Positions 6,269 to 26,753 of a stretch of 64,000 nt of DNA are shown here, piece after piece (position 1 is the stretch's first letter; the number at the start of each line of letters is the position of its first letter). The position numbers and the translations under genes are program-made. Source of the stretch: Roseomonas sp. HF4 (GTDB lineage: Bacteria; Pseudomonadota; Alphaproteobacteria; Acetobacterales; Acetobacteraceae); assembly GCF_005222755.1 (NCBI RefSeq), contig NZ_STGD01000007.1, positions 186,001-250,000 on the forward strand, given 5' to 3'. The notes below the pieces were generated by a model. The model worked only from the letters and a program-made list of their open reading frames with translations. It was not told the origin of the DNA and ran no database searches.

Positions 6269-6273
6269 GGCCC

Positions 6274-7209: not shown

Positions 7210-7213
7210 GGCG

Positions 7214-7549: not shown

Positions 7550-7674
7550 GGCACTCTCCTGCATGGGTTCAGCGGCGCGATACGGACCCGCGGCGACGCG
7601 CCCCCCCGCAGGCTTTCCGACCTGCCGGACCGACCTCGGCCCCTGGTGCCGAAGCCATGCGTTTCCATCCCGGG

Positions 7675-7739
7675 CGGAGGCGCCGTTGCGCCTCCGGCGA
7701 GAGCATTCCAGCGGCCACCCCGGCCGTCCAATGGAATGC
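7675..7739. promoter_or_regulatory. Inverted repeats in the divergent promoter region of the LysR gene and catabolic operon
   Basis: Two inverted repeats lie in the 239-base gap between the CMD-like gene and the LysR gene. The first is a 9-base arm pair, CGGAGGCGC and GCGCCTCCG, with a four-base loop (7675-7696). The second is GCATTCCA and TGGAATGC, separated by 21 bases (7703-7739). LysR regulators usually bind dyads between divergent genes, so these are the best candidate operators. The first could instead be a transcript hairpin. Confidence 0.4.
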
Positions 7740-7788
7740 CTGCCGCGGCCCATAGATGTCGTTTATGGTTCGACGCCGGAGGACGCCC

Positions 7789-8682
7789 ATGAACCTGCGC
7801 CAGCTCGAGGTCTTCCACGCCGTGATGCGGGCCGGCACGGTGACGGGCGCGGCGCGACTGCTCGGCGTGACGCAACCCTCGGTCAGCACCGTGCTCAAGC
7901 ATTGTGAGGCGCAGCTTCGCATGCCGCTGTTCCGCCGCCTGGGCGGCCGGCTGCAGCCGACGCCCGAGGCCGAGGCGATCCTGCCGGACATCGAGGCGAT
8001 CTTCGCCCGGCTGGACTCCGTCGAGCGGCAGCTGCGCGACCTCAAGGGCGGCCGGATCGGGACGCTCTCGCTGGCCGGGGCCTTCCCGATCGCCAACGGC
8101 TACCTGGCCGCGGCCGTCGCGTCCTTCATCGCCGAGCGGCCGGGCGTGCGCGTCGTGCTGCAGGCGCTCGCCTCCTCCGAACTGCTCGACCGCGTGGTCA
8201 GCCGCGAGGTGGAACTCGGCGTCGGCCTGGAGCCAATCGTGCACCCGGAGCTGGAGACCGAGGTGCTCGTCGCTTCCGGCGTCGCCTGCGTGATGCGGGA
8301 CGACCACCCCCTGGCCGCGCAGGAGGAGGTCGCGATCCGCCAGCTCGACGGTCTGCCCATCATCACCTTCCTGTCGCGCGCCCCGCTGCGCGGCTACGTG
8401 GACCGGGCGCTCTCCGAGGCCGGGATCGTGCCGCGCATCAGCGTGCAGGTGAGCATGTCCATGACCGGCATGGCGCTGGCGCATCACGGCGCCGGCGTCG
8501 CGCTGGTCGAGCCCTTCCTGCTGAGCACCTTCCCGATCCCGGGCCTGGTCGTGCGCCCGCTGCGGCCGCGCATCGAGATGAAGACGTTGCTGATCCGCGC
8601 CCGCTCCGCGCCCCGCTCGGCCATCATGGAGACCTTCGTCGCGCATCTGCACCGCGAGGTGCCCCGGCTGCTGGCCCCATAG
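7789..8682 (+). CDS. LysR family transcriptional regulator
   Basis: 297 residues. The N-terminal winged helix-turn-helix (MNLRQLEVFHAVMRAGTVTGAARLLGVTQPSVSTVLKHCEAQL; residues 1-60) is textbook LysR. An effector-binding domain follows (from about 90, GTLSLAGAFPIANGYLAAAVASFIAERPGVRVVLQ). The start at MNLRQLE is set by the GGAGG seven bases before it; upstream in-frame starts lack one. It is divergent from the catabolic operon at 1-7549 and probably controls it in response to an intermediate. The C-terminal part resembles the NocR/LysR subgroup, but the ligand is unknown. Confidence 0.95.
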   Translation: MNLRQLEVFHAVMRAGTVTGAARLLGVTQPSVSTVLKHCEAQLRMPLFRRLGGRLQPTPEAEAILPDIEAIFARLDSVERQLRDLKGGRIGTLSLAGAFPIANGYLAAAVASFIAERPGVRVVLQALASSELLDRVVSREVELGVGLEPIVHPELETEVLVASGVACVMRDDHPLAAQEEVAIRQLDGLPIITFLSRAPLRGYVDRALSEAGIVPRISVQVSMSMTGMALAHHGAGVALVEPFLLSTFPIPGLVVRPLRPRIEMKTLLIRARSAPRSAIMETFVAHLHREVPRLLAP

Positions 8683-8698
8683 CGCCGGACCGGGCGCG

Positions 8699-9904
8699 TC
8701 AGCCGCGCGCCTGCTCCTCGGGCGGCCTGAGATGCCGGAACGCCCAGAGCAGGGCGAGGTCGTAGGCGATCTTGAGGCCGCCGCAGATCAGGAAGGGCGC
8801 GGCCTGCCAGCCGGCGGCGAAGAGGGCACCGGCGATCGCGGGGCCGGCCGCCGCCGCCAGGCTGCGCGGGACGGCCGTGAAGCTCGACGCCGCCGTGCGC
8901 TCGGGCGGCGTGACCACGGCCATGACGTAGGAGGTGCGCGTCGGCACGTCCATCTGCGACAGCGCGGACCGCAGCAGCAGCAGGCCGAGCGCCCAGGCGG
9001 CATCGGGCGCGAACATCGCCGCGATCAGGCAGAGGCTCGAGGGGATGTGCGTGAAGACCATCGTGTTGATCAGCCCGATCCGCCCCGCAAGCCACGCCGC
9101 GACCGGGAAGGAGAAGGCCGAGAGCACGCCCGACCAGAAGAAGAACAGCCCGGCCTGCGCCAGCGACAGGTCGAAGCGCTCGAACAGCCAGAGCGCCAGC
9201 AGCGCCTGCACGGCGAAGCCGCCGGCGAAGCTGTCGACGCTGAACAGGGCGGCCAGCTTCAGCACGATGCCGCGCGACGGGCCGAGCGGCGCATGGTTCG
9301 CGCGCCGCGCTTCGGGTGCGGCCGGGATGAGCGCGCGATAGGCGAGCAGGCAGCCGAGCCCGAGGGCGGCATAGAGGACGAAGGCCGAGCGCAGCGCCGC
9401 GACCTCGCCGAGCCCGAGCGTGGCGAGCGCCTGCGGCGCGCCCGCCGCGAGGGCGCCGGCCGCCGCGGCCAGCGCCCCCACCAGGCTGTAGCGGGCGAAG
9501 ACCTTGGTGCGGGCCGCATCTAGCGCCGCCTGGCTCAGCAGCGCCTGTTCCAGCGGGGCAAAGACACTGACGCTGCCGGCCGAAGGGTTGATCGTGCCGA
9601 TGAGGGCGATGGCGAGCAGCAGCGCGAAGCCGGTCGCCGCGGCGAAGCCGAGGCCTGTCGCGACCATCAGCAGCGCCGCGGCCAGCAGCATCCGGCGCGG
9701 ATCCGCGCGTCCGCCCAGCAGGCCGACGCCGAGCGTCATCATCGCCGAACCGAGCAGCGCGATCGTCGCCACCGCGCCGACCTCGCGCGCGCCGTAGCCT
9801 AGGGCGACGAGGTAGGCCGGCAGGACCACGGCGACCAGGCCGTCGCCGAAGTCCCGGATGCCGCGGGCGAGGATGACGTGCCGGATGGCGGCGCGGCCGG
9901 TCAT
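8699..9904 (-). CDS. MFS transporter
   Basis: A 401-residue inner-membrane protein with about 12 hydrophobic segments, for example VAVVLPAYLVALGYGAREV, AALLMVATGLGFAAATGFALL and AGLFFFWSGVLSAFSFPVAAWLAG. Loop motifs such as GGRADPRRMLL after helix 2 fit the major facilitator signature GxxxDRxGRR. The start MTGRAAIRH was chosen because the hydrophobic core begins soon after, but no clear ribosome site precedes it and a longer N-terminus is possible. It is convergent with the LysR gene, 16 bases apart. Substrate unknown; the late loop PTRTSYVMAVVTPPERTAA is typical of drug/sugar efflux MFS members. Confidence 0.88.
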   Translation of the reverse strand: MTGRAAIRHVILARGIRDFGDGLVAVVLPAYLVALGYGAREVGAVATIALLGSAMMTLGVGLLGGRADPRRMLLAAALLMVATGLGFAAATGFALLLAIALIGTINPSAGSVSVFAPLEQALLSQAALDAARTKVFARYSLVGALAAAAGALAAGAPQALATLGLGEVAALRSAFVLYAALGLGCLLAYRALIPAAPEARRANHAPLGPSRGIVLKLAALFSVDSFAGGFAVQALLALWLFERFDLSLAQAGLFFFWSGVLSAFSFPVAAWLAGRIGLINTMVFTHIPSSLCLIAAMFAPDAAWALGLLLLRSALSQMDVPTRTSYVMAVVTPPERTAASSFTAVPRSLAAAAGPAIAGALFAAGWQAAPFLICGGLKIAYDLALLWAFRHLRPPEEQARG

Positions 9905-10025
9905 GCGGCGCGCCGTGGGCGGCGGGTCATCGGCCGCGCATCGCGGGAATGCGGGATGGCGCGCATCGGCGCCCCTTCTCCGGCGCGGCGCGCCGGGACA
10001 TGGACGCGAGTCGTGGGCCGCGGCC

Positions 10026-10376
10026 TCACGGGGCGATCGCGTGCGGTGCCTCGGGCGGCACGATGGCGAGGCGCGCGCCGTGGTCGCGCGCCTGGGCGAG
10101 CCGCCGGACCTGGATCCGGCCGGCCTCGGCCTGTCCGGCATCGACGGGCTGCAGCGTGTTGCCGCTGCCCCACCCGTCCTGAACGTCGACGGCAAGGCCC
10201 GGCTCGCGGAACCGGCCGCGCGGCCCCGCGAGATGCATGGCGGCGTGGACGCTCCAGGGCGGGGCATCGAACCGAACGGCCAGGCGTTCGGCCTTCGCGT
10301 ACGCGATGCCGGGCGCGGCGATGGCCTCCGCGGCAGCGACCAGCGCCGCCGGGCGCCCGAAGATCAATCCGCGCAT
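10026..10376 (-). pseudogene. Decayed NMT1/THI5-like ABC solute-binding protein (N-terminal remnant)
   Basis: An open stretch of 116 codons whose middle reads LAVRFDAPPWSVHAAMHLAG, then RGRFREPGLAVDVQDGWGSGNTLQPVDAGQAEAG. This matches the opening of SsuA/THI5-like substrate-binding proteins, normally of the form 'DWxPxxxHAxxYxAxxxGxFxxxGLDVxxxxGxGSxxxxxxVxxGxADxG'. The reading frame stops after about 115 residues, whereas such proteins are normally 310-340 long. No continuation is obvious in the 120 bases before the MFS gene, and no ABC permease or ATPase partners are nearby. I read it as a relic. The identification rests on motif resemblance alone. Confidence 0.55.
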
Positions 10377-10380
10377 GCCC

Positions 10381-11058
10381 GTTCTCCCTGCTGGTTCCGT
10401 GCCTCGCGCAGTCTCGCGGTCCGCGCCGCGTCGACCGCGACGGCGGAGCGCGTGCGGGCCGCCCTCGGGGTCACCTCGCCATTCCACACGTCGCGCGCAA
10501 CCGCCGCGAACTCCCGTCCCCGGACACCTTGGGCGTGCCGTCGCCGACCGCGGTGATGGCGACCGCCAGCGGCACCGCGTCGTCCGAAAGCCTGTCGCTG
10601 TCGCTGTGGTCGGTCAAGCGGCAGGTGCCCCCGGGCCGGGTGGCGATCTCGTCCCGGGCCACGCGCTCCGCGTCATTGGGCAGCGCGGCGCGGTAGCCAT
10701 GCATGCGGTCGGCATCGCCGCGCTGCGCCAGGCGCCCGGTCTCCCGCGTGCCCACGTGGCAGGCCGCGTGTTGCGCGCGCAGGCCGCGCAGCACGCGAAC
10801 ATCGAGGCCGATCGCCATCCCCGGTGTCTCGTCCATGATGCCGGCGCTGAACAGTCCCGGCGGCGTCGCCGAGAACCGGGCGACCATCCCATTTCGCCCG
10901 CGCGGCGGCCACCGCCTCGGCGATGGCGCCGAGGTGCTGCGCGATCGGCCTGGCCTGCGTGACCAATGCGCGCTGCGCGAATCGCGGACCGCGCCGGAGC
11001 AGTCCATCGCGTCCCTGACGGTCCAGGAGCGGGTCGCCGTGCCGCCGCGGAACGACGA
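10381..11058 (-). pseudogene. Degenerate coding remnant, unidentified
   Basis: On the reverse strand a protein-like stretch containing ATPPGLFSAGIMDETPGMAI and ALPNDAERVARDEIATRPGG runs from about 10870 to 10530. It then appears to continue in another frame as EFAAVARDVWNGEVTPRAARTR (about 10500-10400). Frame changes and the lack of one full-length reading frame indicate a frameshifted gene. I do not recognise the family. It lies just upstream of the decayed solute-binding protein remnant, so the two may be parts of one lost catabolic operon. No intact gene is seen between 9905 and 11293. Confidence 0.35.
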
Positions 11059-11293
11059 CTACGACCGGCTGATCGGCGCGATGGTCATTGCCGGCCTGCG
11101 TGCCGGCCGGGCGATGTCGGGCGGTGGGCGGGCGCTGCATCGCGTGTCTGCGGGATGTCGTCTCCGGGCTGCGGCGCTTCCGCGGCTGTCGGCCTGCGGG
11201 CAGCATCCCATGCTTGCGCCGTTCCGCGCGCTGCGGCCGGCGCAGGTGAACCCGCCGACGGCAGGCGGCGAACCTGGCAGAGCCAGCACACGG

Positions 11294-12466
11294 TCAGCGC
11301 GCCGCGAACAGCCGGCCGGAGGCGATGCGCGCCCCCTCTGCCATCGCGCGCAGCTTCGCCCAGGCGACGTCGCCGGCGACGCGGCCGCGCCCCGCGGACG
11401 TGTCGAAGCCGCAATCGGTGCCGGCCATGACGCGGGTGGGATCGCCGACGACGCGTGCGGCGCGCTCGAGCCGCTCCGCGACGAGTTCCGGATGCTCGAC
11501 GAAATTCGTCGTCGTATCCAGGACGCCGGCCACCAGCAGCTGGTCGTCCGCCAGGGGCATCCTGGCGAGGACGCCGATCTCGTGGGCATGGCGCGGATTG
11601 GCGAAGGGCAGGACGAAGCCACCGACCCTCGCCTTCATGATCACCGGCAGTATCTCCGCGAGCGGCACGTCCGCGTCGTGGGGACCCTCGTAATTGCCCC
11701 AGCACACATGCAGGCGGACGCGGTCGCGCGGAATGCCCTCGAGCGCGGCGTTGATCGTCGCGACCACACGCTCGCAGAAGCCGAGGAAGTCCGACAGCGG
11801 GCGATCCTGGTAGAGGCCATGCCGCTCGAGCGCCAGGTCCGGGCAGTCGAGCTGCAGCAGGAAGCCGTGCGCCACGATGGCGCGGTATTCGACCGCGAGC
11901 GCCTTCCCGAGCGCGGCGAGGTAGGCGTCCTCGGTGTCGTAGAAGCGGTTCTCGACGATCGACCCGATGATGCCGGGCGACGGCGCGGTCATGAAGGCTT
12001 CGGCATAGCGGCCCTTCTGCGCGTCCAGCGTAGCGGCGAAGTCGTCGCATTCGGCCTCGATCGCCGTGGTGTCGCCATAGGTCACCTCGCCGATCGCGGC
12101 CGGGAGGTGGCTGGTATGGGAGACCGCTTCCGCCGGCGCGGCCTCGCGCAGCGCCTCCTGGTAGTCGGGGTAGGATTTCAGGTCCTGCCAGACCGGTCGC
12201 TGGCTCTCGTCCCCGAGGCCCGTCAGGCGGTGGCGCAGGTAGAGGACGAAGGATTCGCGCTGCTGCTCGCCGTTGTTGATGATGTCGAGACCGCAGGCGA
12301 TCTGCTGCGGCACGACGGCACGCAGCGCTGCGCGGCCGGCCGCCTCGATCTCGCGCTCATCCACCGGCTCGCCGCGGACGCGGCGCGCATAGAGGCGCGT
12401 GAGCGCCCGGGGCCGCGGCAGGCTGCCGGTGTGGGTGGTGTAGATGCGGGTTTCGCTGCGCTTCAT
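11294..12466 (-). CDS. Cobalamin-independent methionine synthase-like protein (MetE C-terminal domain family)
   Basis: 390 residues forming a single UROD/MetE-like TIM barrel. Markers are TTHTGSLPRP at the N-terminus, CGLDIINNGEQQR, the zinc-ligand block RVRLHVCWGNYEGPHDADVPL (His and Cys), and a late Cys in VMAGTDCGFDTSAGRG. Proteins of this short type (YxjG/YxjH-like) transfer a methyl group to a thiol or process related substrates, and often replace or supplement full MetE. The start is MKRSETRIYTTHTG, where conservation begins. It stands alone between a decayed region and the polyketide synthase cassette. True methionine synthesis is not certain. Confidence 0.88.
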   Translation of the reverse strand: MKRSETRIYTTHTGSLPRPRALTRLYARRVRGEPVDEREIEAAGRAALRAVVPQQIACGLDIINNGEQQRESFVLYLRHRLTGLGDESQRPVWQDLKSYPDYQEALREAAPAEAVSHTSHLPAAIGEVTYGDTTAIEAECDDFAATLDAQKGRYAEAFMTAPSPGIIGSIVENRFYDTEDAYLAALGKALAVEYRAIVAHGFLLQLDCPDLALERHGLYQDRPLSDFLGFCERVVATINAALEGIPRDRVRLHVCWGNYEGPHDADVPLAEILPVIMKARVGGFVLPFANPRHAHEIGVLARMPLADDQLLVAGVLDTTTNFVEHPELVAERLERAARVVGDPTRVMAGTDCGFDTSAGRGRVAGDVAWAKLRAMAEGARIASGRLFAAR

Positions 12467-12923
12467 GCTTCCGTCCGCCCTTGTCCGATGCATTGGCCGA
12501 GTTCGGCGCCGAGCGCCTGCTTGCATGACCCTGCCCCCCGGCTGCGGTCTTGAAAACTCCCTGTTCGTCGCGTCAGGAAATCCCCGGGAGGATCAGGATC
12601 GTCCCCGGCATGCTGCCATATGCGCTGAAGTCTCCCTGTTCTGCCGCTTGCGTGCCGGCCGACCGCCGCGCCGTCGAGGCCGGCGGGGCAGGGAACCCAC
12701 GCGCGCCGGTGGGTCTCGATGGTCTGCCGATCGCCTGTGTGCGAGAATGACGCGCGTCCCGGTCGTGGCCCCTGGACCGCTGCGGGCAACGGCGTGCGGG
12801 GCGCCCCGGGGCGCGCTGGACAACGCCGGAATTTCCATCACGTTTGACCCCGCCTGCCCGTTGGCGCGAGCGGAAGGTGGTCGGTCCCTGCCCGCAATCG
12901 CCCAGACATGACGGGACGAGCGT
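12467..12923. other. Intergenic stretch with no recognised gene
   Basis: 457 bases between the MetE-like gene and the type III PKS gene, which point away from each other. Short open frames exist on both strands but none has a family motif or a supported start. It should contain the promoters for both flanking genes. I see no clear inverted repeat. Confidence 0.6.
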
Positions 12924-13988
12924 ATGCAATCAGTCTACATCAACCGGATCGCGTGTGCCGTTCCGCCCAACCAGGTGCACGAGGCGTTCTCCATCTTCGC
13001 TGGGCGGCAGGTCCTGCAGGGCCGCGATTCGACGACATTCGCGCGCATGGCGGCCCGCAGCCAGATCCAGAGCCGGTGGTCCGTGCTCACACCCTCGGAG
13101 CCGCTCGGCAGCGGAACCGCCTGCGGCTTCTACCAATGGGGCGGCGCATTCCCGTCCACGAAAACCCGCATGCAGCGCTACGAAGCGGCGGCGCCGGCCC
13201 TGGCCGAAGCCGCGCTGGACGCGCTCGGCCTCGGGGAGGAAGCGCCTCGCGTCACGCACATCGTGTTCGCGAGTTGCACGGGCTTCGCCGCCCCCGGGCT
13301 CGATCACTGGATCATCAACCGGTACGGCATCCGCGGCAGCGTGGAGCGCAGCATCATCGGCTTCATGGGATGCCAGGCTGCGATCAACGCGCTCAAGTTC
13401 GCGTGGCACATCGTGCGCAGCGATCCCGGTGCCCGCGTGCTGGTCGTCTGCCTCGAACTCTGCACCCTGCACCTCCAGCAGACGTCGGCGATCGAGCAAC
13501 TGCTCTCCTTCCTGATCTTCGCCGATGGCTGCGCGACCGCGCTCGTCAGCGCCGAGCCGGGCGGGCTCAGGGTGGACGGCTTCCATGCCGGCCTGGTGCC
13601 GCAGGCGGCGGACCAGATCACCTGGCGGATCGGCGACGCCGGCTTCGACATGACGCTCTCGGGCCTCGTGCCGTTCACCCTGGCCCACGCGCTGCCGGAG
13701 TGGCGCCACGAGATCCTGGGCGGCGCGGATACGTCGGAGATCGACCTGTGGGCGGTCCATCCCGGCGGGCGCAGCATCCTCGACGCCGTGGCGCACGGGC
13801 TCGACCTGCCCGCCGACGCCCTGGATGAGAGCCGCGCGGTGCTGCAGGAGAACGGCAACATGTCCTCGGCCACGGTCATGTTCGTGCTGCGCGACATGAT
13901 GGCGCGCGCGCAGCCGGGCCAGCGCGGATGCGCCATGGCCTTCGGACCGGGACTCTCGGCGGAGACGATGCGGTTCGTGTGCGCCTGA
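12924..13988 (+). CDS. Type III polyketide synthase (chalcone/alkylresorcinol synthase-like)
   Basis: 354 residues with the complete thiolase-fold catalytic triad of type III PKSs: Cys150 in GFMGCQAAINALKFA, His279 in DLWAVHPGGRSILDAV, and Asn312 in QENGNMSSATVMFVL. The GFGPG-like loop is present as MAFGPGLSAETMRF. Such homodimeric enzymes extend an acyl-CoA or acyl-ACP starter with malonyl-CoA and cyclise it to alkylresorcinols or alkylpyrones. It is the first gene of a tightly coupled trio (a one-base overlap with the methyltransferase gene). The order PKS, methyltransferase, flavoprotein resembles the Streptomyces srsABC phenolic lipid cassette. The product (methylated, hydroxylated phenolic lipid or quinone) is inferred. 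Confidence 0.95.
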   Translation: MQSVYINRIACAVPPNQVHEAFSIFAGRQVLQGRDSTTFARMAARSQIQSRWSVLTPSEPLGSGTACGFYQWGGAFPSTKTRMQRYEAAAPALAEAALDALGLGEEAPRVTHIVFASCTGFAAPGLDHWIINRYGIRGSVERSIIGFMGCQAAINALKFAWHIVRSDPGARVLVVCLELCTLHLQQTSAIEQLLSFLIFADGCATALVSAEPGGLRVDGFHAGLVPQAADQITWRIGDAGFDMTLSGLVPFTLAHALPEWRHEILGGADTSEIDLWAVHPGGRSILDAVAHGLDLPADALDESRAVLQENGNMSSATVMFVLRDMMARAQPGQRGCAMAFGPGLSAETMRFVCA

Positions 13989-14689
13989 TGGCGGGCTTCC
14001 GGCTCTCCGCGCGCAGCACCGAGCCGGAGTGGATGGACGACGCCGCGCAGGGCGATGCCGCGTTCCGGAGCGCGCTTCGGGACCTCGAATTCCTCAACCG
14101 CATCAGCCTCGGCTACCGGCCCACCCTCGCATGGCTCGACGGGCTGGTTGCGCGAAGGGGTGCGACCACGCTCTCGGTCCTCGATGTCGGTGCGGGCGGC
14201 GGCGACATGCTGCGCCGGATCGCCCGCTGGGGCGTCGCGCGCGGCGTCACGCTCGAACTCACCGGCCTCGACCGCAGCCCGGCCGCCGCGGCGGCGGCGC
14301 GCGACGCCGGCACGCCGGGGTCCTGGATCACCGCGGACCTTTTCGACCTGCCGCGCGACGCGCGCTTCGACGTGGTGATCTCGGCGCTCTTCACGCACCA
14401 TCTTCCCGATGCCGAACTGGCGCGCTTCCTGCTCTGGATGGAGGCGCACGCCCGGCTCGGCTGGATGATCAACGACATCCACCGCCACGCGGTGCCGTGG
14501 TACGGGCTTTGGGCCGGTACGCGGCTGCTCCGCCTCGATCCGATGGTGGTGCATGATTCCACGGTCTCGGTCGCGCGCGCCTTCACACGGGCCGACTGGA
14601 CCAGGCTGACGGCCGAGGCGGGCCTCGACGCCCGGGTGACGTGGCGATTCCCCTTCCGCTGGTCCGTGTCCCGGGACGTCGCCCCGTGA
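13988..14689 (+). CDS. Class I SAM-dependent methyltransferase of the type III PKS cassette
   Basis: 233 residues. The SAM-binding motif I is VLDVGAGGGDMLRRIARWG near residue 61, followed by an acidic motif II region (LTGLDRSPAAAAAARDAG) and DVVISALFTHHLPDAELARFL (motif IV/post). The start ATG shares its first base with the stop of the PKS gene (TGATG), which indicates translational coupling and picks this start over in-frame upstream ones. By analogy with SrsB and BpsB it probably methylates the polyketide product on oxygen or carbon. UbiE-like quinone methyltransferases are the other near relatives. Confidence 0.9.
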   Translation: MAGFRLSARSTEPEWMDDAAQGDAAFRSALRDLEFLNRISLGYRPTLAWLDGLVARRGATTLSVLDVGAGGGDMLRRIARWGVARGVTLELTGLDRSPAAAAAARDAGTPGSWITADLFDLPRDARFDVVISALFTHHLPDAELARFLLWMEAHARLGWMINDIHRHAVPWYGLWAGTRLLRLDPMVVHDSTVSVARAFTRADWTRLTAEAGLDARVTWRFPFRWSVSRDVAP

Positions 14690-15837
14690 GCGGCGTCGCG
14701 CGGGATGCCGATGTGCTCGTCGCGGGCGGCGGTCCCGCAGGCGCCGCCTGCGCGATCCGGCTCGCGCGCGCGGGGCGCCATGTCCTGCTCGTGGAGCGGG
14801 AGGCGGGACCGCGCGAGAAGGTCTGCGGGGAGTTCCTCGGCGCCGATGCGCAGGCCTGCCTCGCGGCACTCGGGATCGATCTTCCCGCGCTCGGTGCCGT
14901 GCGGATCACGGAGGCGAGGATCGCGCGCCGCGCCGCCCATGCCGCCTTCGCACTCCCCTTCGCGGCCTGGGGCTTGCCGCGCAGCGTGCTGGACGAGGCG
15001 CTGCTCCGGGCCGCCGCGGCGGCGGGGGCCACCGTCCTGCGGGGCCGCTCCGTGACCGATGCAACGCGCGAGGGCGACGCCTGGTGCCTGCGGCTGGCGG
15101 ACGGGGCAAGGCTGCGCGCGCCGCACCTCGTGCTCGCCACCGGCAAGCGTCCGCTCCGGGGCTTCGCGCGGGCGGGGGCGACGGAGGGATGGATCGGGGC
15201 GAAGCTGCACCTCCGCCTGCGCGCGCCGCTCGATGCCGTCGTGCTGCTGCCCTTCGCCGGGAGCTATGCCGGCCTGCAGCCGAGCGGCGATGGCATGGCC
15301 AACCTCTGTGCGGCGCTGGCGCCCGGGGCGGCCGGCGAAGCGCGCGACGCGGAGCGCTTCGTCGGCTCGGTGCGCGCCGGATCGCCGCTCGCCGCGGCGC
15401 TGCTGGGCGGCGCGCAGCCGTGCATGCCGCGCCCGCTGACCGTGGCCGGCGTGCCCTACGGCTTCCTGCACCGGGACGCGCCGGCTGCCGACCCGGCGCT
15501 CTGGCGCCTCGGCGACCAGTTCGCGGTCATCCCGTCCTTCCTCGGCGACGGCATGGCCATGGCGCTTGCGGGCGGCATCGCGGCGGGCGCGGCGATCGTG
15601 TCCGGCGGATCGGCGCCGGATTTTCACGCAGGCTGGCGGCGGCAGCTCGCGGGGCCGATGCGGATCGCCGGCCTTACCGGCTTCGTCCTGCGGCGGGCGC
15701 CCGGTCTCTTCGCGGATGCCGTCGCGACGGTGCCGGGCCTGGCGCGCCTCGTGGCCCGGCGCACCCGCGTGATCGGTGCCGAACGACCGGTCCCGGCTGC
15801 CGCCGTGCCGGGCAGGCCCATGGCGGGGCTCCGCTGA
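14686..15837 (+). CDS. FAD-dependent oxidoreductase (geranylgeranyl reductase/monooxygenase-like) of the type III PKS cassette
   Basis: 383 residues. The N-terminal FAD motif is DVLVAGGGPAGAACAIRLARAGR, followed by the ribityl-binding strand HVLLVEREAGPREKVCGEFL and a later FAD-closing motif FLGDGMAMALAGGIAAG. The KVCGE motif and length match the geranylgeranyl reductase/aromatic hydroxylase family. A GTG start overlapping the methyltransferase stop (GTGA) was chosen; a GTG 45 bases upstream is the alternative. As the third gene of the cassette it would play the SrsC role, hydroxylating or oxidising the resorcinol ring towards a quinone, or else reduce a double bond. Confidence 0.9.
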   Translation: MSGVARDADVLVAGGGPAGAACAIRLARAGRHVLLVEREAGPREKVCGEFLGADAQACLAALGIDLPALGAVRITEARIARRAAHAAFALPFAAWGLPRSVLDEALLRAAAAAGATVLRGRSVTDATREGDAWCLRLADGARLRAPHLVLATGKRPLRGFARAGATEGWIGAKLHLRLRAPLDAVVLLPFAGSYAGLQPSGDGMANLCAALAPGAAGEARDAERFVGSVRAGSPLAAALLGGAQPCMPRPLTVAGVPYGFLHRDAPAADPALWRLGDQFAVIPSFLGDGMAMALAGGIAAGAAIVSGGSAPDFHAGWRRQLAGPMRIAGLTGFVLRRAPGLFADAVATVPGLARLVARRTRVIGAERPVPAAAVPGRPMAGLR

Positions 15838-15874
15838 GCGACGTCTGCCGGGCCGGGGAATCCCGGGCGGGACG

Positions 15875-16993
15875 CTACCCGCGCCGCAGCGCGGCCGCCG
15901 GGGACAGGCGGACGGCGCGCCAGGCGGGATAGAGCGCGCCGACGGCACAGAGCACCAGGGCGCCCGCCAGCGGCACCAGCAGCCCGCCCACGCTCGGCTT
16001 GAAGGAGATGTAGCTCCCGATCGCGGGGATCGCCTCGAACAGCCCGGTGAAGGCGATGCCGATGCCGACGCCGAGCATGCAGCCGATGACGCCGAGCATC
16101 GTCCCTTCGAGCAGGATGAGCCCGAGCAGGCGTCCGTCGGACCAGCCGATGGCGGAGATCATGCCGATCTCCCGCGTGCGTTCCTGCACCGACATCAGCT
16201 GAGTGCTGAGGACATTGAGGCCGCCCAGCGCGAGCGCCATGAGCGACACCGCGAGGGAGACCGCGTCGAGCACGGCGATGTTGCGGTCATGGTCCATCGC
16301 CTCGGCGGCCTCGGAGACGATGACCGGGCCCACGGCCGCCAGCGCCGCGCCCACTTCCGCCCGGCGGCCGGCGGATTGCGGGCCGGCCAGCCTGATGTGG
16401 AACCCGGTGACCTGTCCCGGGCGGTAGGTGATGGCCTGGAGCGTCTCGAGCGGCATCAGGACGACGCTCCGGTTCATCCGCGAGGCCCACCTGGCGATCC
16501 CGACCACCTCGAAGCTTTCCTCGGCGAGGTCGACGCGCATGCCGGGCGCGAGGCCGAGGCTCTCGGCAATGACGTCGCCCAGCACGACGTGCCGTTCGTC
16601 GCCGGCCCGCAGGTTGCGTCCGGCCACGATGGGCGCGTTGCGCACCGCCGCCGCCGTCGCGGGCACCCCTGCGGCCAGGAGCGGCCGTGCCCGCGCATCG
16701 GACACGAAGGCGATCAGTTCGCGATTCACCTCGGCCACGCCGGGAACCGCGGCCAGCCGTTCGCCGAGGGCTTCCGGCAGCCGGCCGCCGAACGCATCCG
16801 TCGCGGCGCGCTGCGTCACCACGAGGTCGGCGCCGCGCTCGCCGAGGCTGTCGCCGACGCCGGCCTTGATGCCCTGGCCGAGGGAGAGCAGTGCGATCGC
16901 GCCGCCGACCGCGACGCCGATGCCGAGGATCGAAAGCAGGGTCCGCGCCGGGCGCCGGCGCAGATTGCTGAGCGCGAGGCCGAACAGGTTCAT
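15875..16993 (-). CDS. ABC transporter permease, FtsX/MacB (LolC/E-like) family
   Basis: 372 residues: one N-terminal transmembrane helix (NLRRRPARTLLSILGIGVAVGGAIALLSLG), a periplasmic MacB-PCD domain of about 200 residues, and three C-terminal helices (about 235-365) ending AWRAVRLSPAAALRRG. That architecture defines the MacB/LolCDE superfamily, whose members extract or expel lipids and peptides by mechanotransmission. Its start overlaps the ATPase stop by four bases. It converges on the PKS cassette with only 37 bases between the stops. Together with the MlaC-like gene this looks like a lipid export system. Confidence 0.92.
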   Translation of the reverse strand: MNLFGLALSNLRRRPARTLLSILGIGVAVGGAIALLSLGQGIKAGVGDSLGERGADLVVTQRAATDAFGGRLPEALGERLAAVPGVAEVNRELIAFVSDARARPLLAAGVPATAAAVRNAPIVAGRNLRAGDERHVVLGDVIAESLGLAPGMRVDLAEESFEVVGIARWASRMNRSVVLMPLETLQAITYRPGQVTGFHIRLAGPQSAGRRAEVGAALAAVGPVIVSEAAEAMDHDRNIAVLDAVSLAVSLMALALGGLNVLSTQLMSVQERTREIGMISAIGWSDGRLLGLILLEGTMLGVIGCMLGVGIGIAFTGLFEAIPAIGSYISFKPSVGGLLVPLAGALVLCAVGALYPAWRAVRLSPAAALRRG

Positions 16994-17691
16994 GCCGCCT
17001 CCCGGTCCTGGCGCTCATCCGACACCACGTTCCCGTCATGCATGCGGATGCGCCGCGGACAGCGGGCCGCGAGCGCGGGATCGTGCGTCACCATCAGCAG
17101 GGTCATGCCGCTGTCCTGCGGCAGGCCGAGCAGCAGCGCGGCGACGGTCTCGGCATTCGCGCTGTCGAGGCTGCCGGTCGGCTCGTCCGCGAGAAGCAGG
17201 GCCGGGCGGCGCACCAGCGCGCGCGCGATGGCGACGCGCTGGCGCTCGCCGCCCGAGAGCTCAGCCGGCAGGTGCCCCGTACGGGCCGCGAGCCCCACGC
17301 GCGCCAGCGCCGTGGCGGCCTGGTCGCGCTGCGCGCGGCCGCTCAGGCCGCCACCCATCAGCGCGAGCTCGACGTTCTGCAGGGCGGTCAGCGTCGGCAG
17401 CAGGTTGAACTCCTGGAACACGATCGCGATGTCATTCCGCCGCAGCGCAGTCCACTCGCGCCGCGCGACGACCGGCCGGCCCTGCCACAGGACGCGGCCC
17501 GCGCTGGGCACGTCGATCCCGCCGGCCAGGTTCAGCAGGCAGGTCTTGCCGGAGCCGCTGCGGCCGGTGAGCGCGACGCACTCGCCGGCGCCGATCGCGA
17601 GGCTGACATCGCGGAGCGCCGTCACATGGCCGCCGTCGAAGCTGCGCGACACCCGGTCGAAGGCGAGCAGCGCACGCGCGTCCGCGTTCAC
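16990..17691 (-). CDS. ABC transporter ATP-binding protein (LolD/MacB-type)
   Basis: 233 residues with intact motifs: Walker A ALTGRSGSGKTCLLNL near residue 43, Q-loop VFQEFNLLPTL, signature LSGGERQRVAIARAL, Walker B ALLLADEPTGSLD, and the H-loop His in LMVTHDPALAARC. The GTG start overlaps the stop of the MlaC-like gene (GTGA). It powers the FtsX-type permease encoded next. The DEPTGSLD sequence is typical of the MacB/LolD clade. Confidence 0.94.
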   Translation of the reverse strand: MNADARALLAFDRVSRSFDGGHVTALRDVSLAIGAGECVALTGRSGSGKTCLLNLAGGIDVPSAGRVLWQGRPVVARREWTALRRNDIAIVFQEFNLLPTLTALQNVELALMGGGLSGRAQRDQAATALARVGLAARTGHLPAELSGGERQRVAIARALVRRPALLLADEPTGSLDSANAETVAALLLGLPQDSGMTLLMVTHDPALAARCPRRIRMHDGNVVSDERQDREAA

Positions 17692-18266
17692 GGGCGCGTC
17701 GCCCCGCGGGCCAGCGCGCCGATCGCCGCGTCGACATCGCCGCCGGCGGCGTCGAGCGCGGCCAGCACCTCGTCGTGCAGGCGGGTGCCGAGCGTCATGC
17801 CATCCGCGGCAACGTCCGTCGCCTGCCAGCCCCACGGCCCGCCGGCGCGCAGGCGCCACACCAGGATGCGCTCGGAGCCGTCGGCGCGGAGCAGCCGGGA
17901 CGTCACCGACACGTCGCCCCGACGCTGCCGCGTGGCGAGAAGGGCCAGCGTGCCGGGGCGGTCGTCGCGCGCGCAGTCGGCCGCAAGCCGTGCGTGCAGC
18001 GCGGCGCGGAAGCGCGCACGCTTCCCCTCGGCCAGCCCGTCCCAGAGGGTCCCGCCCGCGACCGTGCGCGAGAGGGAGGCGAGATCGAAGGCCGCTTCGG
18101 CGAACCGGTCACACGCCGCGATCCTCGGCGCGCCGGGCGCCGCGGCGCCGATGGCCCGGAAAGCGGCATCGCTGCGCATGATGAACGCCTCGGCAGGCGA
18201 GGATTCGGCCGCGTAGGCGGCGGTCGACCAGCCGAGCAAGGCAGCGAGAAGGAAGGCGCGGCGCAT
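17688..18266 (-). CDS. MlaC/Ttg2D-like periplasmic lipid-binding protein
   Basis: 192 residues with a Sec signal peptide (MRRAFLLAALLGWSTAAYAAES). The mature part follows the MlaC pattern: an early helix with DRFAEAAFDLASLSR, then KRARFRAALHARLAAD, then strands VSVTSRLLRADG and ILVWRLRAGGPWGWQATDVAADGMTLGTRLHDEVLAAL, and finally GGDVDAAIGALA. MlaC proteins carry phospholipids across the periplasm. The start was taken at MRRAF, which has GGAG before it; an ATG 12 bases upstream is possible. Its operon partners are an ATPase and an FtsX-type permease, an unusual pairing because MlaC normally works with MlaFEDB. Confidence 0.82.
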   Translation of the reverse strand: MRRAFLLAALLGWSTAAYAAESSPAEAFIMRSDAAFRAIGAAAPGAPRIAACDRFAEAAFDLASLSRTVAGGTLWDGLAEGKRARFRAALHARLAADCARDDRPGTLALLATRQRRGDVSVTSRLLRADGSERILVWRLRAGGPWGWQATDVAADGMTLGTRLHDEVLAALDAAGGDVDAAIGALARGATRP

Positions 18267-18562
18267 TCGATGCTCCATCGCTCGACGAGGCGGGCCCGTC
18301 GGTCATTCGCCGTGCCACCGGGGAAGGCGCGGCACCCCCGCCGCCGCCGCGACATGCGGGCGGCAAGGTCGCCGTGTGACCCGGGCCGCGCCATGGCGCG
18401 CGGGATGCCATCCAGATGCACGTCGGAATGCCCCTTCGTTCCCGCCGGAACCGTATCCCACATGGCTGAAGGCGCCGCCAGACGAGGTCGGGTCGCGGCG
18501 CCTCCCGGCCCGGCGCCATCCGTCGACCTGCGACACGACCCGGGCATGGCCAGCGGCGGGCC

Positions 18563-19066
18563 ACGGCGGGATTGCGCTTTGCCCCGAAGCGCAGCGCGTC
18601 GACATCGGCGACGAGGCGGGCACCGGCCAGTGGCTCGGCCGCGGCAGCGCGCGCCATCGGTCCCGCCAGGCGATACAGCGATCCGCCCGTGGCGATCAGC
18701 ACATCGCCGCTGTCGTCCCAGTCACAGCCGCGAAGCCGGCGCAGCTCCACGGCCGCCCCGGTCACCACGACGTCGTGCCCCCGCCTCGGGCCGTGGATGG
18801 CGCCGATGGCCAGGAGCTTCCGTCGGAGCGTCACGACGGGCTGTCGCGAGTGCCACGGCGCGGGCTGCGGCCTCTCGAAGACCTGTGGCTCGGTGAAGGT
18901 CCAGCCATGCGGACCGCGGCCCTTGTCGACCGCCCACTTTCCCTGATCGACCATCCGCCAGACATCGCGCTCCATGCGCGCACGCTCGATCGGAAGGTCC
19001 TCGCCGCGGCCGGCCTAGTCCGCGACCGGCTCCACCACGAAATCGCCGGGCAGGGCGAAGTCGCGG
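18563..19066 (-). pseudogene. Decayed gene of unknown family with internal stop
   Basis: On the reverse strand a coding-like stretch reads DFALPGDFVVEPVAD, then a TAG stop (19015-19017). It continues in the same frame with KWAVDKGRGPHGWTFTEP, then VVTLRRKLLAIGAIHG, and then CDWDDSGDVLIATGGSLYRLAG. Composition and continuity across the stop suggest a broken gene whose last part ends in beta-propeller-like strands. I do not recognise the family. The rest of 18267-19633 holds no supportable gene; a short AT-richer patch at about 19370-19410 may be a promoter. Confidence 0.4.
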
Positions 19067-19633
19067 TGTGACCCTACCCAGGTTCACCGCGGTGGCCGCC
19101 TCATACACCACGCTGTGGGACACGACCGCTGTCGGTGCCGCCACCGCCACCGCGAGGAATCCGTCGAAACCGATCAGTGGTTTCATGCGTTACCTGGTAA
19201 TGTTCGACCGTCACCACGCCGACGACACAGACCCAACGCAACCCGACGGAGCGGTGCAGACCCGATGCGCTGTGCTCCACCCCGGCCTGGACGGCGCTGA
19301 TGACGTGCAGCCGAGGGGGTGGTCGGCGAGTGCGCGAGGATTGGCTCGCCTTGATCCACCTCAATACGAGCCCATTCGAAATAAAATACGTTCTAACATT
19401 ACAGATCGGCGTTGCTCTCCGATCGCAGCCATCGAGTCTCCCTCGCTGTCGCGGTCACGCGCCAGCCTCAATGAGGAGGAGCAGTCGTGGCGTGCTTCCG
19501 ACTTCTCGCGATTGGGCTGCTGGCTCGCGGCGCCCGCGATCAGCGACAGGCCAGGCGCGCCACCACAGCCGCTGGGCGCGCGATCGAATGGGCGGTCGGA
19601 CGACCGGAGACCGCTGAGACACAGGAGACGATC

Positions 19634-19903
19634 ATGCGCACAACGCGTCTAGCAATCCTGCTCCTGGCCGGCGTCGGGCTGTCCGCCTGCGTCGGGGTGC
19701 GCGACGTCTCGTACCGGCAGCCATACGGCACCTTCACCGGCAGCACGCACCTCGCCACGCCCTACGCGTACCCCAGAGGCACAACGCCCTACCTGTACGA
19801 CCAGTCACAGCGCTCGTGGCCGCGCACCTACAACCGCCAGAACCAGGGCAACTACCGCAATCGGCACAATCGTCCTGGCCACGACAACAGACGGAATTTC
19901 TGA
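19634..19903 (+). CDS. Small lipoprotein, probable recombinant paralogue of the 20495 gene
   Basis: An 89-residue lipoprotein. The signal peptide MRTTRLAILLLAGVGLSAC ends in a lipobox with Cys19. The mature part is Tyr, Arg and Asn-rich (YRQPYGTFTGSTHLATPYAY) and carries YLYDQSQRS near residue 56. The signal peptide, the ribosome site region upstream and the YLYDQSQRS motif are nearly the same as in the lipoprotein at 20495-20734. The glycine-zipper middle of that protein is absent here. The basic, Asn-rich tail after the motif is unique. Function unknown, probably outer-membrane associated. Confidence 0.75.
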   Translation: MRTTRLAILLLAGVGLSACVGVRDVSYRQPYGTFTGSTHLATPYAYPRGTTPYLYDQSQRSWPRTYNRQNQGNYRNRHNRPGHDNRRNF

Positions 19904-20034
19904 CCGGGACGGCGCGCGACATGTGGATGGCTGGCCGCAACAGGCGCCGTAGGCCGAGGCGCGCAACCCCAGCCGCAACGCGGAGCGGAGGCTCATCCAG
20001 CCCGCCAGCCCCCGCAACTTTGGAGGAGATCGTC

Positions 20035-20478
20035 ATGCGAACAGCGACTGCAGTTGCCTTGGCGTTGGCCGGCTCCGTGGCCCTGGCCTCGGGAGCCATG
20101 GCTCAGAGCCGATCGGAGTCGACCAGACCGGCCATCGTCACCCATGTCCAGACGGCCAGCGAACTCGCTGCCATCTGTGATCCCGCCTGGGGCGGCGTGC
20201 CGCGGCTGGAGGCCATCGCCTATTGCCAAGGCTTCCTCACCAGTTTCGGCCAGTACCACGCGCTGCTGTATCCGCAGGGCGGACCCGCGAGGCCGCTCTT
20301 CTGCGTGCCGGTGCCGGGGCCGACGGTGGCCGAGTCCGGCGTCGCCTTCGCCGCCTGGACGCGGGATAACCCGCGCTACGGCAACGAGCCAGCGCTCGAT
20401 GGCCTCCTGCGCTGGGCCCAGGCGAATTTCCCCTGCCCGACGAGGTCGCCGGCGCGCAGTTCGCGAAGCACACGCTGA
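20035..20478 (+). CDS. Rap1a/Tai-like secreted protein
   Basis: 147 residues with a Sec signal (MRTATAVALALAGSVALASGAMAQ) and a strong TTGGAGGAG ribosome site. The mature domain has ICDPAW, AIAYCQGFLTSFGQYHALLYPQGGP, LFCVPVPGPTVAESGVAFAAW, and RWAQANFPC. The four Cys and the spacing match the Rap1a immunity-like domain, known from T6SS immunity proteins but also common as stand-alone periplasmic proteins in Rhodospirillales. No effector gene is adjacent, so immunity is not supported here. The last dozen residues after FPCP are Ser/Arg-rich and may be a shifted tail. Confidence 0.75.
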   Translation: MRTATAVALALAGSVALASGAMAQSRSESTRPAIVTHVQTASELAAICDPAWGGVPRLEAIAYCQGFLTSFGQYHALLYPQGGPARPLFCVPVPGPTVAESGVAFAAWTRDNPRYGNEPALDGLLRWAQANFPCPTRSPARSSRSTR

Positions 20479-20494
20479 GACGCGGGAGATGATC

Positions 20495-20734
20495 ATGCGC
20501 ACAACACGCCTTGCCATCATGCTCCTGGCCGGTCTCGGCCTGTCCGCCTGCGAGGGGATGACCCCGACGCAGCAGAATGTCGGGATCGGCGCCCTGGGTG
20601 GTGCAGCCGTCGGCGGCATCGCCGGGTCCTTCAGCGGCAATGCCGGGATGGGCGCCCTGATCGGCGCCGGTGTCGGCGGTGTCGGCGGGTACCTCTACGA
20701 CCAATCGCAGCGGTCGCGCCGACCCTACTACTAG
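20495..20734 (+). CDS. Glycine-zipper outer-membrane lipoprotein (YMGG/SlyB-like)
   Basis: A 79-residue lipoprotein. The signal MRTTRLAIMLLAGLGLSAC ends at the lipid-modified Cys19. A Gly-zipper region follows (NVGIGALGGAAVGGIAGSF, then GMGALIGAGVGGVGGYLYD) and the tail is Tyr/Arg. Such proteins sit in the outer membrane and are often stress induced. An in-frame ATG six bases upstream is an alternative start. It is the intact relative of the lipoprotein at 19634. Confidence 0.85.
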   Translation: MRTTRLAIMLLAGLGLSACEGMTPTQQNVGIGALGGAAVGGIAGSFSGNAGMGALIGAGVGGVGGYLYDQSQRSRRPYY

Positions 20735-20857
20735 CGGCCCCGCACGCGCCGCGACGGCGGTGCGACGAATCGACCAGCATCCCGGGGCAGCCGCAACGCA
20801 GGTTGCCCCGGCCACGAATTGAACGCCGGTACGCAAACGCAGCAAGGAGAACATCTC

Positions 20858-21022
20858 ATGTCGCTTGGAACCATTCTGCTCATCATTCTTGTCATCGCCC
20901 TGCTCGGTGGCTTCACCGGGGTCGTCGGTGGCTACGGGTATGGCTTCGGCCATGGCGGGGTCGGCGTGCTGGGCGCGGTGCTGATCATTGTCCTCATCCT
21001 TGTGCTGCTCGGCCGGATCTGA
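20858..21022 (+). CDS. DUF3309 family small membrane protein
   Basis: 54 residues, almost wholly hydrophobic: MSLGTILLIILVIALLGGFTG, a Gly/Tyr turn, then LGAVLIIVLILVLLGRI. This is the DUF3309 pattern, two transmembrane helices around a glycine-rich loop. AAGGAG precedes the chosen ATG. Function unknown; these genes are often found with stress and envelope genes, as here. Confidence 0.85.
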   Translation: MSLGTILLIILVIALLGGFTGVVGGYGYGFGHGGVGVLGAVLIIVLILVLLGRI

Positions 21023-21233
21023 ACCGCGGCAGCCAGGTAACGGAGAAGGCGTCCTTGCCGGCACACCTGGAGAGGCCGCGCCGGCGCCTCGCGCCCGTTT
21101 CCCCGGGGCCGGTGACGTCGGGTCGCGCTCACGGCCTCGGTCCGCGGGCGCCCTGTCCGGGCCGGTCGCCCCCACCCAATCATCGGGGCGCCTAGCGTGC
21201 CTCGATCCAGGAAACGAAAGGCAACTGACGATA

Positions 21234-21377
21234 ATGAACCGCAACCTCATCTTCATCGTGATCGGCGTGCTGGGCATCGGCGCCGGTGCTCTCGGCTACT
21301 GGTATTACCAGGAGCAGCAACGGTCCGGCGTCGACATCAGCATCGGCCCGCGCGGCGTGACGGTCCAGGAGAGATAG
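21234..21377 (+). CDS. Small single-pass membrane protein
   Basis: 47 residues: one transmembrane helix (NLIFIVIGVLGIGAGALGYWYY), a short linker, and a soluble tail SGVDISIGPRGVTVQER. The helix-plus-'SGVxIxIGxxGV' form recurs in short hypothetical proteins of alphaproteobacteria. Function unknown. It lies between two other membrane protein genes in the same direction. Confidence 0.65.
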   Translation: MNRNLIFIVIGVLGIGAGALGYWYYQEQQRSGVDISIGPRGVTVQER

Positions 21378-21428
21378 CGCCGTGCGCCGGCGCTCTTGGC
21401 CGAGCGGCAGCGCCTCGCGAGATGCCGG

Positions 21429-22130
21429 ATGACCCGCCTTCGCCTGCACCGGGAGAACCATCTCGTTGATCGGATCGGATGGCTGCGAGCGGCAGTTCTT
21501 GGCGCCAATGACGGCATCGTCTCGACGGCGAGCCTGATCGTCGGCGTTGCCGCAGCGGCTGCGACACGAGGCGATGTGATGCTCGCAGGGGTCGCGGGGC
21601 TGGTCGCCGGCGCCATGTCCATGGCGGCCGGCGAGTATGTCTCGGTCAGCTCGCAGTCCGACACCGAAGACGCCGACCTGTCGCGTGAACGCGGCGAGTT
21701 GCGGGACAATGCGGAGGCTGAACGTGATGAGCTCGCGGCGATCTATGTCAAACGTGGAGTCGAACCTGCCGTTGCGCAGATCGTCGCAGCGCAACTGATG
21801 GCGAGAGATGCGCTTGGCGCGCATGCGCGCGATGAGCTCGGACTCTCCGAGAGCACGACGGCGCGTCCTGTCCAGGCGGCGCTGACATCCGCGGCGACGT
21901 TCTCCGTCGGCGCCGCGATGCCCTTGCTCATGGTGGTCGCGGCGCCGGCCAACGCGCTGGTTGCGAGCGTGTCGGCGGCGTCGCTCGCCTTCCTCGCCCT
22001 TCTGGGAGCGATCGGGGCATGGGCCGGCGGCGCTCGTGTCCTGCGTGCGACGGTCCGGGTCACATTTTGGGGGGCGCTGGCGATGGCCATCACGGCTGGC
22101 ATCGGGAAGCTTTTCGGCACCGTCATCTGA
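21429..22130 (+). CDS. VIT family (VIT1/CCC1-like) metal transporter
   Basis: 233 residues with about five transmembrane helices. The family blocks are AAVLGANDGIVSTASLIVGVAAA (helix 1), AGLVAGAMSMAAGEYVSVSSQ (helix 2), a cytoplasmic metal-binding helical region rich in Glu/Asp (about 75-130), and three late helices ending ALAMAITAGIGKLFG. VIT1/CCC1 proteins move Fe2+ or Mn2+ out of the cytoplasm. The start was set at MTRLRLHRENHLVDRIGW, where the conserved 'H..HRxNxLR' region begins. Confidence 0.92.
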   Translation: MTRLRLHRENHLVDRIGWLRAAVLGANDGIVSTASLIVGVAAAAATRGDVMLAGVAGLVAGAMSMAAGEYVSVSSQSDTEDADLSRERGELRDNAEAERDELAAIYVKRGVEPAVAQIVAAQLMARDALGAHARDELGLSESTTARPVQAALTSAATFSVGAAMPLLMVVAAPANALVASVSAASLAFLALLGAIGAWAGGARVLRATVRVTFWGALAMAITAGIGKLFGTVI

Positions 22131-26747: not shown

Positions 26748-26753
26748 ATACAA

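What the first reader, a model, noticed from the sequence alone, without database searches (positions are those of the whole stretch)
12924..18266. Type III PKS cassette facing a dedicated-looking lipid ABC exporter
Seen: a coupled PKS-methyltransferase-flavoprotein operon converges, with 37 bases between stops, on a coupled MlaC-like, LolD-like ATPase and FtsX/LolC-like permease operon. Known: srsABC-type cassettes make methylated, hydroxylated phenolic lipids, and some such lipids replace phospholipids in dormant cell envelopes. MlaC carries lipids in the periplasm but normally works with MlaFEDB, not with a LolCDE-type pump. Inference: the six genes form one unit that makes a phenolic lipid or alkylquinone and moves it to the outer membrane, a MlaC-LolCDE hybrid export route I do not know as described.
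Basis: partly seen in the sequence, partly recalled or inferred. Interest (0 to 1): 0.75.

Follow-up and report, generated by a model that had tools for sequence, protein, structure and literature searches.

The report
Lipid pump with an unusual carrier
A bacterium related to Neoroseomonas keeps the genes for making what is probably a phenolic lipid next to a small ATP-driven pump whose periplasmic partner is a lipid carrier of the MlaC kind, and related pump-and-carrier sets sit beside quite different lipid-type genes elsewhere, which suggests a reusable export module, although transport itself has not been shown.

Summary
The type III PKS, methyltransferase and flavoprotein cassette is ordinary: described in Acetobacteraceae in 2021, with the PKS in 54 of 299 genomes of the order. 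The pump trio is rare: a four-helix Type VII ABC permease without the LolC Hook, a LolD/YbbA-like ATPase, and a protein with a confident MlaC fold. Neoroseomonas lacus has the same six-gene block inside unrelated flanks. In a PKS tree, seven trio-bearing rows (five inferred from equal contig lengths) and two with permease remnants share one supported clade; 12 rows with no trio found lie outside. Related trios sit beside other genes: a FabH-like synthase (overlapping codons), a CrtC-polyprenyl-synthetase fusion, an HpnR-like radical SAM cluster; a pump pair without MlaC overlaps oleate hydratase. Best reading: a recruitable lipid-extraction module in which MlaC takes LolA's place, here probably for the PKS lipid. 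The genes are a linked unit, but the trio is no PKS-only invention. Against: convergent transcription, 52 of 54 PKS genomes without the permease, two losses with the cassette kept, no significant co-evolution signal, no chemistry.

The parts
12924..13988 (+). type III polyketide synthase; Cys-His-Asn triad C150, H279, N312 (residue roles recalled from the chalcone synthase family)
   Evidence: Pfam PF00195/PF02797; best solved relatives 4b0n and PKS18 1ted; motif positions
13988..14689 (+). SAM methyltransferase; stop/start overlap with the PKS
   Evidence: Pfam Methyltransf_25 46.8 bits; NCBIfam PRK06202 153.9 bits, below its cut-off 243; overlap
14686..15837 (+). FAD-dependent monooxygenase-like flavoprotein, GTG start overlapping the methyltransferase stop
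   Evidence: Pfam FAD_binding_3 and Pyr_redox_2; geranylgeranyl-reductase/QhpG-like, below cut-offs
15838..15874 (.). 37-base gap between the two convergent stop codons
   Evidence: sequence
15875..16993 (-). Type VII (FtsX/MacB/Lol-type) ABC permease, 372 aa, four long membrane-type helices, no LolC/E Hook insertion
16990..17691 (-). ATPase of the LolD/YbbA/MacB kind, GTG start, Walker A GRSGSGKT, signature LSGGERQR, Walker B LLLADEPTG (motif names recalled)
   Evidence: Pfam ABC_tran 115.9 bits; YbbA 196.3, LolD 195.7 bits, both below cut-off; translation
17688..18266 (-). MlaC-fold lipid carrier with an N-terminal signal-type sequence and an invariant cysteine pair (C52, C98)
   Evidence: Pfam MlaC 27.3 bits; model and PDB matches; alignment A1

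Best explanation
The cassette makes a methylated, hydroxylated alkyl-aromatic or pyrone lipid that partitions into the inner membrane. [quoted passage not shown] MlaC takes the place that LolA has beside LolCDE. The trio belongs to a rare family that is recruited by different lipid pathways; in the Roseomonas-like PKS clade it joined the PKS cassette once and then stayed linked, with at least two later losses. Shown: the six genes, their coupling within each operon, the folds (as confident models), block conservation, the clade and remnants, and the different neighbours elsewhere. Inferred: the product, homodimer, extraction, direction, and hand-over to MlaC.
For: MlaC fold and Type VII fold. 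Six-gene block shared with N. lacus inside unrelated flanks. PKS tree of 26 rows: a 12-row clade (97/96) holds 7 trio, 2 remnant and 3 unknown rows; the other 14 are 12 with no trio found and 2 unknown (labels of the P rows rest on contig lengths). Over all 120 listed PKS, 120 permease and 12 MlaC rows: of 62 PKS rows on contigs of at least 7.5 kb, 6 of 6 at 77-100% identity and 0 of 56 at lower identity share a contig length with a permease or MlaC. Permease remnants beside the cassette in Plastoroseomonas arctica L032 (54% over 61 aa) and, weakly, Rubritepida L031. Related pumps coupled to lipid enzymes: in G003 a FabH-like synthase, MlaC, ATPase and permease joined by overlapping stop/start codons; in G038 oleate hydratase overlaps the ATPase. 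In G671 a CrtC-lipocalin/polyprenyl-synthetase fusion lies upstream. In a distant sister pump (28-30% identity) the gene after the permease matches LolA_like in two of three products scanned, one of them just below the cut-off. Lipid extraction is a described Type VII role (PMC12646458, abstract and passages).
Against: The two operons converge, so one promoter cannot serve both. 52 of 54 PKS-bearing genomes gave no permease match, and P. arctica and Rubritepida kept the cassette while the pump decayed. The PKS and permease distances of the six usable pairs are not significantly correlated (r 0.27, 109 of 720 permutations). Three contigs that carry a PKS-clade-type permease and MlaC (23028, 9370, 5552 bases) have no PKS of equal contig length in the list. 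No outer-membrane acceptor is in the block. No binding, transport or product data exist.
Confidence: 0.55

Rival explanations
1. The trio is an independent lipid or efflux module that merely sits next to the PKS cassette; linkage is historical and its cargo is something else, such as an ordinary membrane lipid or a toxic hydrophobic compound.
For: 52 of 54 PKS genomes without a permease match; two lineages lost it with the cassette kept; convergent transcription; no significant co-evolution signal; three trio contigs with no PKS of equal length listed.
Against: The six-gene block alone is conserved inside unrelated flanks and through a PKS clade; related pumps are coupled by overlapping codons to lipid enzymes at two other loci.
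Confidence: 0.27
2. The trio works inward: MlaC brings lipid from the outer membrane and the pump or a coupled enzyme takes it up, as proposed for Mla retrograde transport (recalled).
For: The carrier fold is MlaC-like.
Against: The permease is Type VII, a class described as working on the periplasmic side and extracting from the membrane (PMC12646458 passages); no MCE or MlaE-type gene in the block; biosynthetic neighbours point outward.
Confidence: 0.1
3. The permease and ATPase act as a signal or enzyme regulator (FtsEX-EnvC or BceAB style), and the MlaC-fold protein is a lipid sensor rather than a carrier.
For: Type VII pumps can regulate periplasmic enzymes (PMC12646458 passages).
Against: No periplasmic enzyme or kinase in the trio; several of the best structural matches are lipid-bound.
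Confidence: 0.08

Closest known systems
LolCDE-LolA lipoprotein extractor
   Same: Type VII fold, LolD-like ATPase, soluble periplasmic lipid carrier as partner
   Different: MlaC-fold carrier instead of LolA; one permease gene instead of LolC plus LolE; Hook missing; far below the LolCE cut-off (71.9 against 362.45 bits); the own genome has two adjacent, much better LolC matches elsewhere (C2, 172.4 and 153.7 bits against 26.6 for this permease)
YbbAP-TesA (E. coli)
   Same: Type VII, proposed to extract hydrophobic compounds to a periplasmic partner (PMC12646458, abstract and passages)
   Different: YbbP has ten membrane helices and an enzyme partner (passages); this permease has four and a carrier-fold partner
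Mla pathway (MlaC with MlaFEDB)
   Same: carrier fold
   Different: no MlaE, MlaD or MlaB-type gene in the block; a separate stronger MlaC match lies at G000:C9 (112.8 bits)
MacAB-TolC
   Same: MacB_PCD/FtsX permease, ATPase kin
   Different: ATPase on a separate gene; no MacA adaptor in the block
Acetobacteraceae type III PKS clusters (PMC8776678; polyketide section read in full, other text by word search)
   Same: PKS plus methyltransferase plus FAD monooxygenase in all clusters; metabolite unknown
   Different: the section mentions no transporter with these clusters; 'mlac' does not occur in the main text
srsABC and arsABCD phenolic-lipid operons (recalled; only listings and passages seen)
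   Same: enzyme classes in one operon
   Different: no pump trio in what I saw; product here unknown

Membership tests
Type VII ABC transporter | FtsX/MacB_PCD permease with the Type VII fold | tested here: met
Type VII ABC transporter | four membrane helices with a periplasmic domain between the first and second | tested here: met
   secondary structure of the model: helices 15-52, 237-271, 286-321, 335-362 around a periplasmic-type domain; membrane topology itself not predicted
Type VII ABC transporter | ATP-driven mechanotransmission | not testable with these tools
   ATPase motifs are intact; activity unknown
LolCDE | score above the LolC/E family cut-off | tested here: not met
   TIGR02212 71.9 bits, cut-off 362.45
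LolCDE | LolA-recruiting Hook in LolC (Hook role: PMC9457489 passages) | tested here: not met
   15-column gap at the insertion that I take for the Hook, in all 8 trio-family and sister permeases aligned to E. coli LolC and LolE; sister pumps lack it too, so the gap is not specific to MlaC partners
LolCDE | two different permease genes and LolA partner | tested here: not met
   one permease, MlaC-fold partner
MlaC family (PF05494) | score above the Pfam cut-off | tested here: met
   27.3 against 26 bits; not listed in a six-frame genome scan; trio relatives 37.9, 44.4 and 71.2 bits
MlaC family (PF05494) | MlaC lipid-binding fold | tested here: met
Mla pathway | MCE-domain MlaD and MlaE permease with MlaC | tested here: not met
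   absent from the block; whole genome not searched for MlaD/E
YbbAP-TesA | ten-helix YbbP and TesA partner | tested here: not met
   372-aa four-helix model; ATPase scores 196.3 of 336 bits with the YbbA model
srsABC-type type III PKS cassette | type III PKS, methyltransferase, flavoprotein in one operon | tested here: met
srsABC-type type III PKS cassette | product is a methylated, hydroxylated phenolic lipid or quinone | not testable with these tools
   no chemistry

The most novel reading that the evidence does not exclude
This is a further functional kind of Type VII ABC system: a pump whose partner is an MlaC-fold carrier, used as a plug-in route from the inner membrane for many non-phospholipid lipids (polyketide phenolics, isoprenoids, FabH-derived and hopanoid-like lipids), with the carrier slot filled by MlaC in one branch and by a LolA-like protein in a sister branch.
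Probability: 0.42. Interest if true: 0.8.

Novelty: new variant of a known kind. Interest (0 to 1): 0.6.

Why it matters
How specialised lipids other than phospholipids, LPS and lipoproteins cross the periplasm is poorly known (my own view of the field). A small, recurrent pump-plus-carrier set that is coupled to lipid-making genes would give a testable route, and it would suggest that the carrier partner of a Type VII pump can be swapped. The cassette's product in Acetobacteraceae was still unknown in the 2021 survey (PMC8776678), so pump mutants would also help to find it.

Tried and rejected
Searches that led nowhere: permease against 72,556 plasmid records at E 1e-20, no match. Promoter and terminator scan of 12400-18800, none found; no tRNA in 1-40000; no repeat that would mark an insertion around the block in 11000-21500. 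Distance correlation of PKS and permease, six pairs, not significant. MlaC profile hits in 41 of 299 order genomes: four places in three genomes score above 190 bits, the rest 50.7 bits or less; of 27 such weaker loci tested (L049-L075) none has the permease beside it, so they were treated as ordinary MlaC-type proteins; the weaker places without a locus were not tested. MlaC single-sequence search in 59 relatives: 26 genomes match, only four places above 60 bits.

Rejected: the trio as the cell's housekeeping Lol system (better LolC matches at C2). The trio as a Mla pathway (no MCE or MlaE gene in the block). The PKS cassette as new (PMC8776678). Not tested: whether cassettes without the trio have another exporter beside them (only gene calls were made).

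Paper searches for the combination: MlaC with FtsX, LolD, ABC transporter and MacB, 0 papers; MlaC with type III polyketide, 0; MlaC with FtsX-like permease, 0; MlaC-like with gene cluster, biosynthe and ABC transporter, 0; type III PKS with phenolic lipid, outer membrane, ABC transporter, export (4 of 5 terms), 4 papers, seen as listing only. Only open-licence PMC papers are held.

Rows dropped: L038 (647 bases held after the PKS) and L040 (partial PKS) were left out of the tree; P0012 was left out of the correlation because no permease of its contig length is listed. L029 (in the trio clade, labelled unknown) has about 400 bases after the flavoprotein and no permease in them. The tree used 26 PKS sequences: the window's, 12 of the 14 named loci, and 13 of the 120 listed proteins. 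One search compared only the first 35 PKS and first 27 permease rows; one search repeated it over all 120, 120 and 12. That showed two further equal lengths, 2980 (P0010/P0194) and 2040 (P0076/P0235) bases, with permeases of 47-48% identity; I take these as chance (different sources in the first, too short for both genes in the second). They show that equal length on short contigs proves nothing.

Limits of the genome searches: per genome only the best few candidates of the first look were scored (6), so 'no match' is not proof of absence. One search, another draw of 299 family genomes, found the permease in 1 of 299, the own genome.
Full report
Where and what. The window lies at C7:186001-250000 of a 5.35 Mb, 56-contig genome, G000. 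The six genes are as described: a coupled PKS-methyltransferase-flavoprotein operon on the plus strand, 37 bases, and a coupled MlaC-like/ATPase/permease operon on the minus strand.

The cassette is known and common; the trio is rare. PMC8776678 (polyketide section read) reports PKS plus methyltransferase plus FAD monooxygenase in all Acetobacteraceae type III clusters, metabolite unknown. In 299 genomes of the order the PKS is in 54 at E 1e-50 and the permease profile in 3 at E 1e-30; the two calls appear to use the same draw, and each scored only 6 candidates per genome. Two genomes have both, G000 and G032, with the two genes under 3 kb apart in each. The third, G003, has a trio but no PKS match. 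Another draw of 299 family genomes had 1 with the permease, the own one. Over 337 class genomes only G000 and G038 exceed 300 bits, and in 96 genomes of G038's order, G038 and G671. The single-sequence MlaC search gave 12 proteins at E 0.001, the own one included, with only 7998 candidates scored.

The six genes as a block. Between the window and the 21-kb N. lacus stretch, DNA identity of 75-79% covers 12938-15774 and 15873-18266 and stops there on both sides. Apart from one 65-base match, no flanking DNA matches, and no called flanking protein does (rough gene calls; 10 kb upstream of the PKS and 5 kb beyond the MlaC-like gene are held for N. lacus). So the unit is conserved while its surroundings are not. 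In N. lacus the gap between the two operons is 567 bases instead of 37.

History. I compared the longest-contig lengths of all 120 listed PKS rows with those of the 120 listed permease and 12 MlaC rows. Of 62 PKS rows on contigs of at least 7.5 kb, all 6 with 77-100% identity to the window's PKS share a length with a permease or MlaC row (274811, 9776, 12436, 11951, 7749, 350642; the listed sources agree or overlap in each), and none of the 56 with lower identity does. Two short equal lengths (2980, 2040) I take as chance. Three contigs with permease and MlaC (23028, 9370, 5552) have no PKS of equal length in the list. Equal length is an inference of sameness, and it shows neither distance nor orientation. 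Plastoroseomonas arctica has the cassette and, about 7 kb downstream on the expected strand, a decayed permease piece (61 aa at 54% identity to the window's; DNA 71% over 171 bases to N. lacus). In the Rubritepida MAG a weaker trace of the permease's last residues lies just after the flavoprotein (E 0.23, but in the right place and strand and ending on a stop). The simplest reading is one joining of trio and cassette and at least two losses.

Other partners of the same pump. Four further loci of the permease family were read. Own genome C31: trio converging on a GNAT-type gene, beside three radical SAM genes, of which one is closest to hopanoid methylase HpnR (244 bits, cut-off 650). G003: FabH-like synthase, MlaC, ATPase, permease in a row, each stop overlapping the next start. 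G671: a CrtC-lipocalin/polyprenyl-synthetase fusion, then MlaC, ATPase, permease on one strand. G038: alpha/beta hydrolase, oleate hydratase (599.9 bits, cut-off 567), ATPase, permease, no MlaC found, then a convergent P450; the hydratase stop overlaps the ATPase start I infer. A distant sister permease (28-30% identity to the window's) occurs in four of 299 phylum genomes, all of one family. There the ATPase and permease are followed by a gene of about 250-270 aa; of three such products scanned, L136's matches LolA_like at 37.3 bits (cut-off 30), L134's at 28.9, just below, and L137's has no match. L135's was not scanned. So the carrier slot appears to be filled by MlaC in one branch and by a LolA-like protein in another.

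How it most likely works. Type VII pumps do work on the periplasmic side, and partner proteins define their role; extraction of hydrophobic molecules is proposed for YbbAP and described for LolCDE (PMC12646458, abstract and passages). By that rule a Type VII pump with an MlaC-fold partner should lift a lipid from the inner membrane into the carrier. Next to a PKS cassette the natural cargo is its lipid product. The product, the homodimer, the direction and the hand-over are inferences. No acceptor in the outer membrane is in the block.

Results against. Convergent transcription; 52 of 54 PKS genomes without a permease match; two losses with the cassette kept; no significant PKS-permease distance correlation (r 0.27, 109 of 720 permutations); about 400 bases after the flavoprotein in close relative L029 hold no permease; three trio contigs without a listed PKS of equal length. 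These lower the claim that the pump is needed for the PKS product, less so the claim that the trio is a lipid module.

Verdict. Observation confirmed; interpretation partly supported; a new variant of the Type VII ABC kind, with the PKS cassette itself already described. I found no print description of an MlaC-Type VII pairing in four searches of open PMC papers, which is not proof of absence.

Noticed in passing
L043 (own genome C31) 3-16325: A second, diverged trio in the same genome (ATPase 68%, permease 49%, MlaC 35% identity) beside three radical SAM genes, one HpnR-like, two GNAT genes and a site-specific recombinase at the contig start.
   Followed up: partly
L134-L137 (G775, G793, G821, G879): A sister pump operon: ATPase, permease, a LolA-like protein (L136; L134 just below cut-off) and, where scanned (L134), a Metal_hydrol protein; in L134 it is divergent from cytochrome b561, DUF1924 and dihaem cytochrome genes.
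   Followed up: partly
L097 300-2507 (G671): An unusual fusion of a CrtC/lipocalin part with a polyprenyl synthetase, upstream of a trio.
   Followed up: partly
L095 5672-11362 (G038): Alpha/beta hydrolase, oleate hydratase coupled to an ATPase-permease pair of this family without a detected MlaC, and a convergent P450: looks like a fatty-acid modification and export cluster.
   Followed up: partly
L040 1010-2122: A radical SAM gene sits between the PKS and the methyltransferase of an otherwise similar cassette (Acetobacteraceae MAG HOG26).
   Followed up: no
window 10471-11007: A 178-aa frame that matches only profile positions 178-269 of 519 of Hydantoinase_B, probably a decayed gene upstream of the block.
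   Followed up: no
window 19612-19699 and 20473-20560: Two 88-base copies (84% identical) that cover the start of what looks like a small lipoprotein gene.
   Followed up: no
window 24351-26753: An 800-aa protein with a family 16 glycosyl hydrolase domain and RTX calcium-binding repeats.
   Followed up: no
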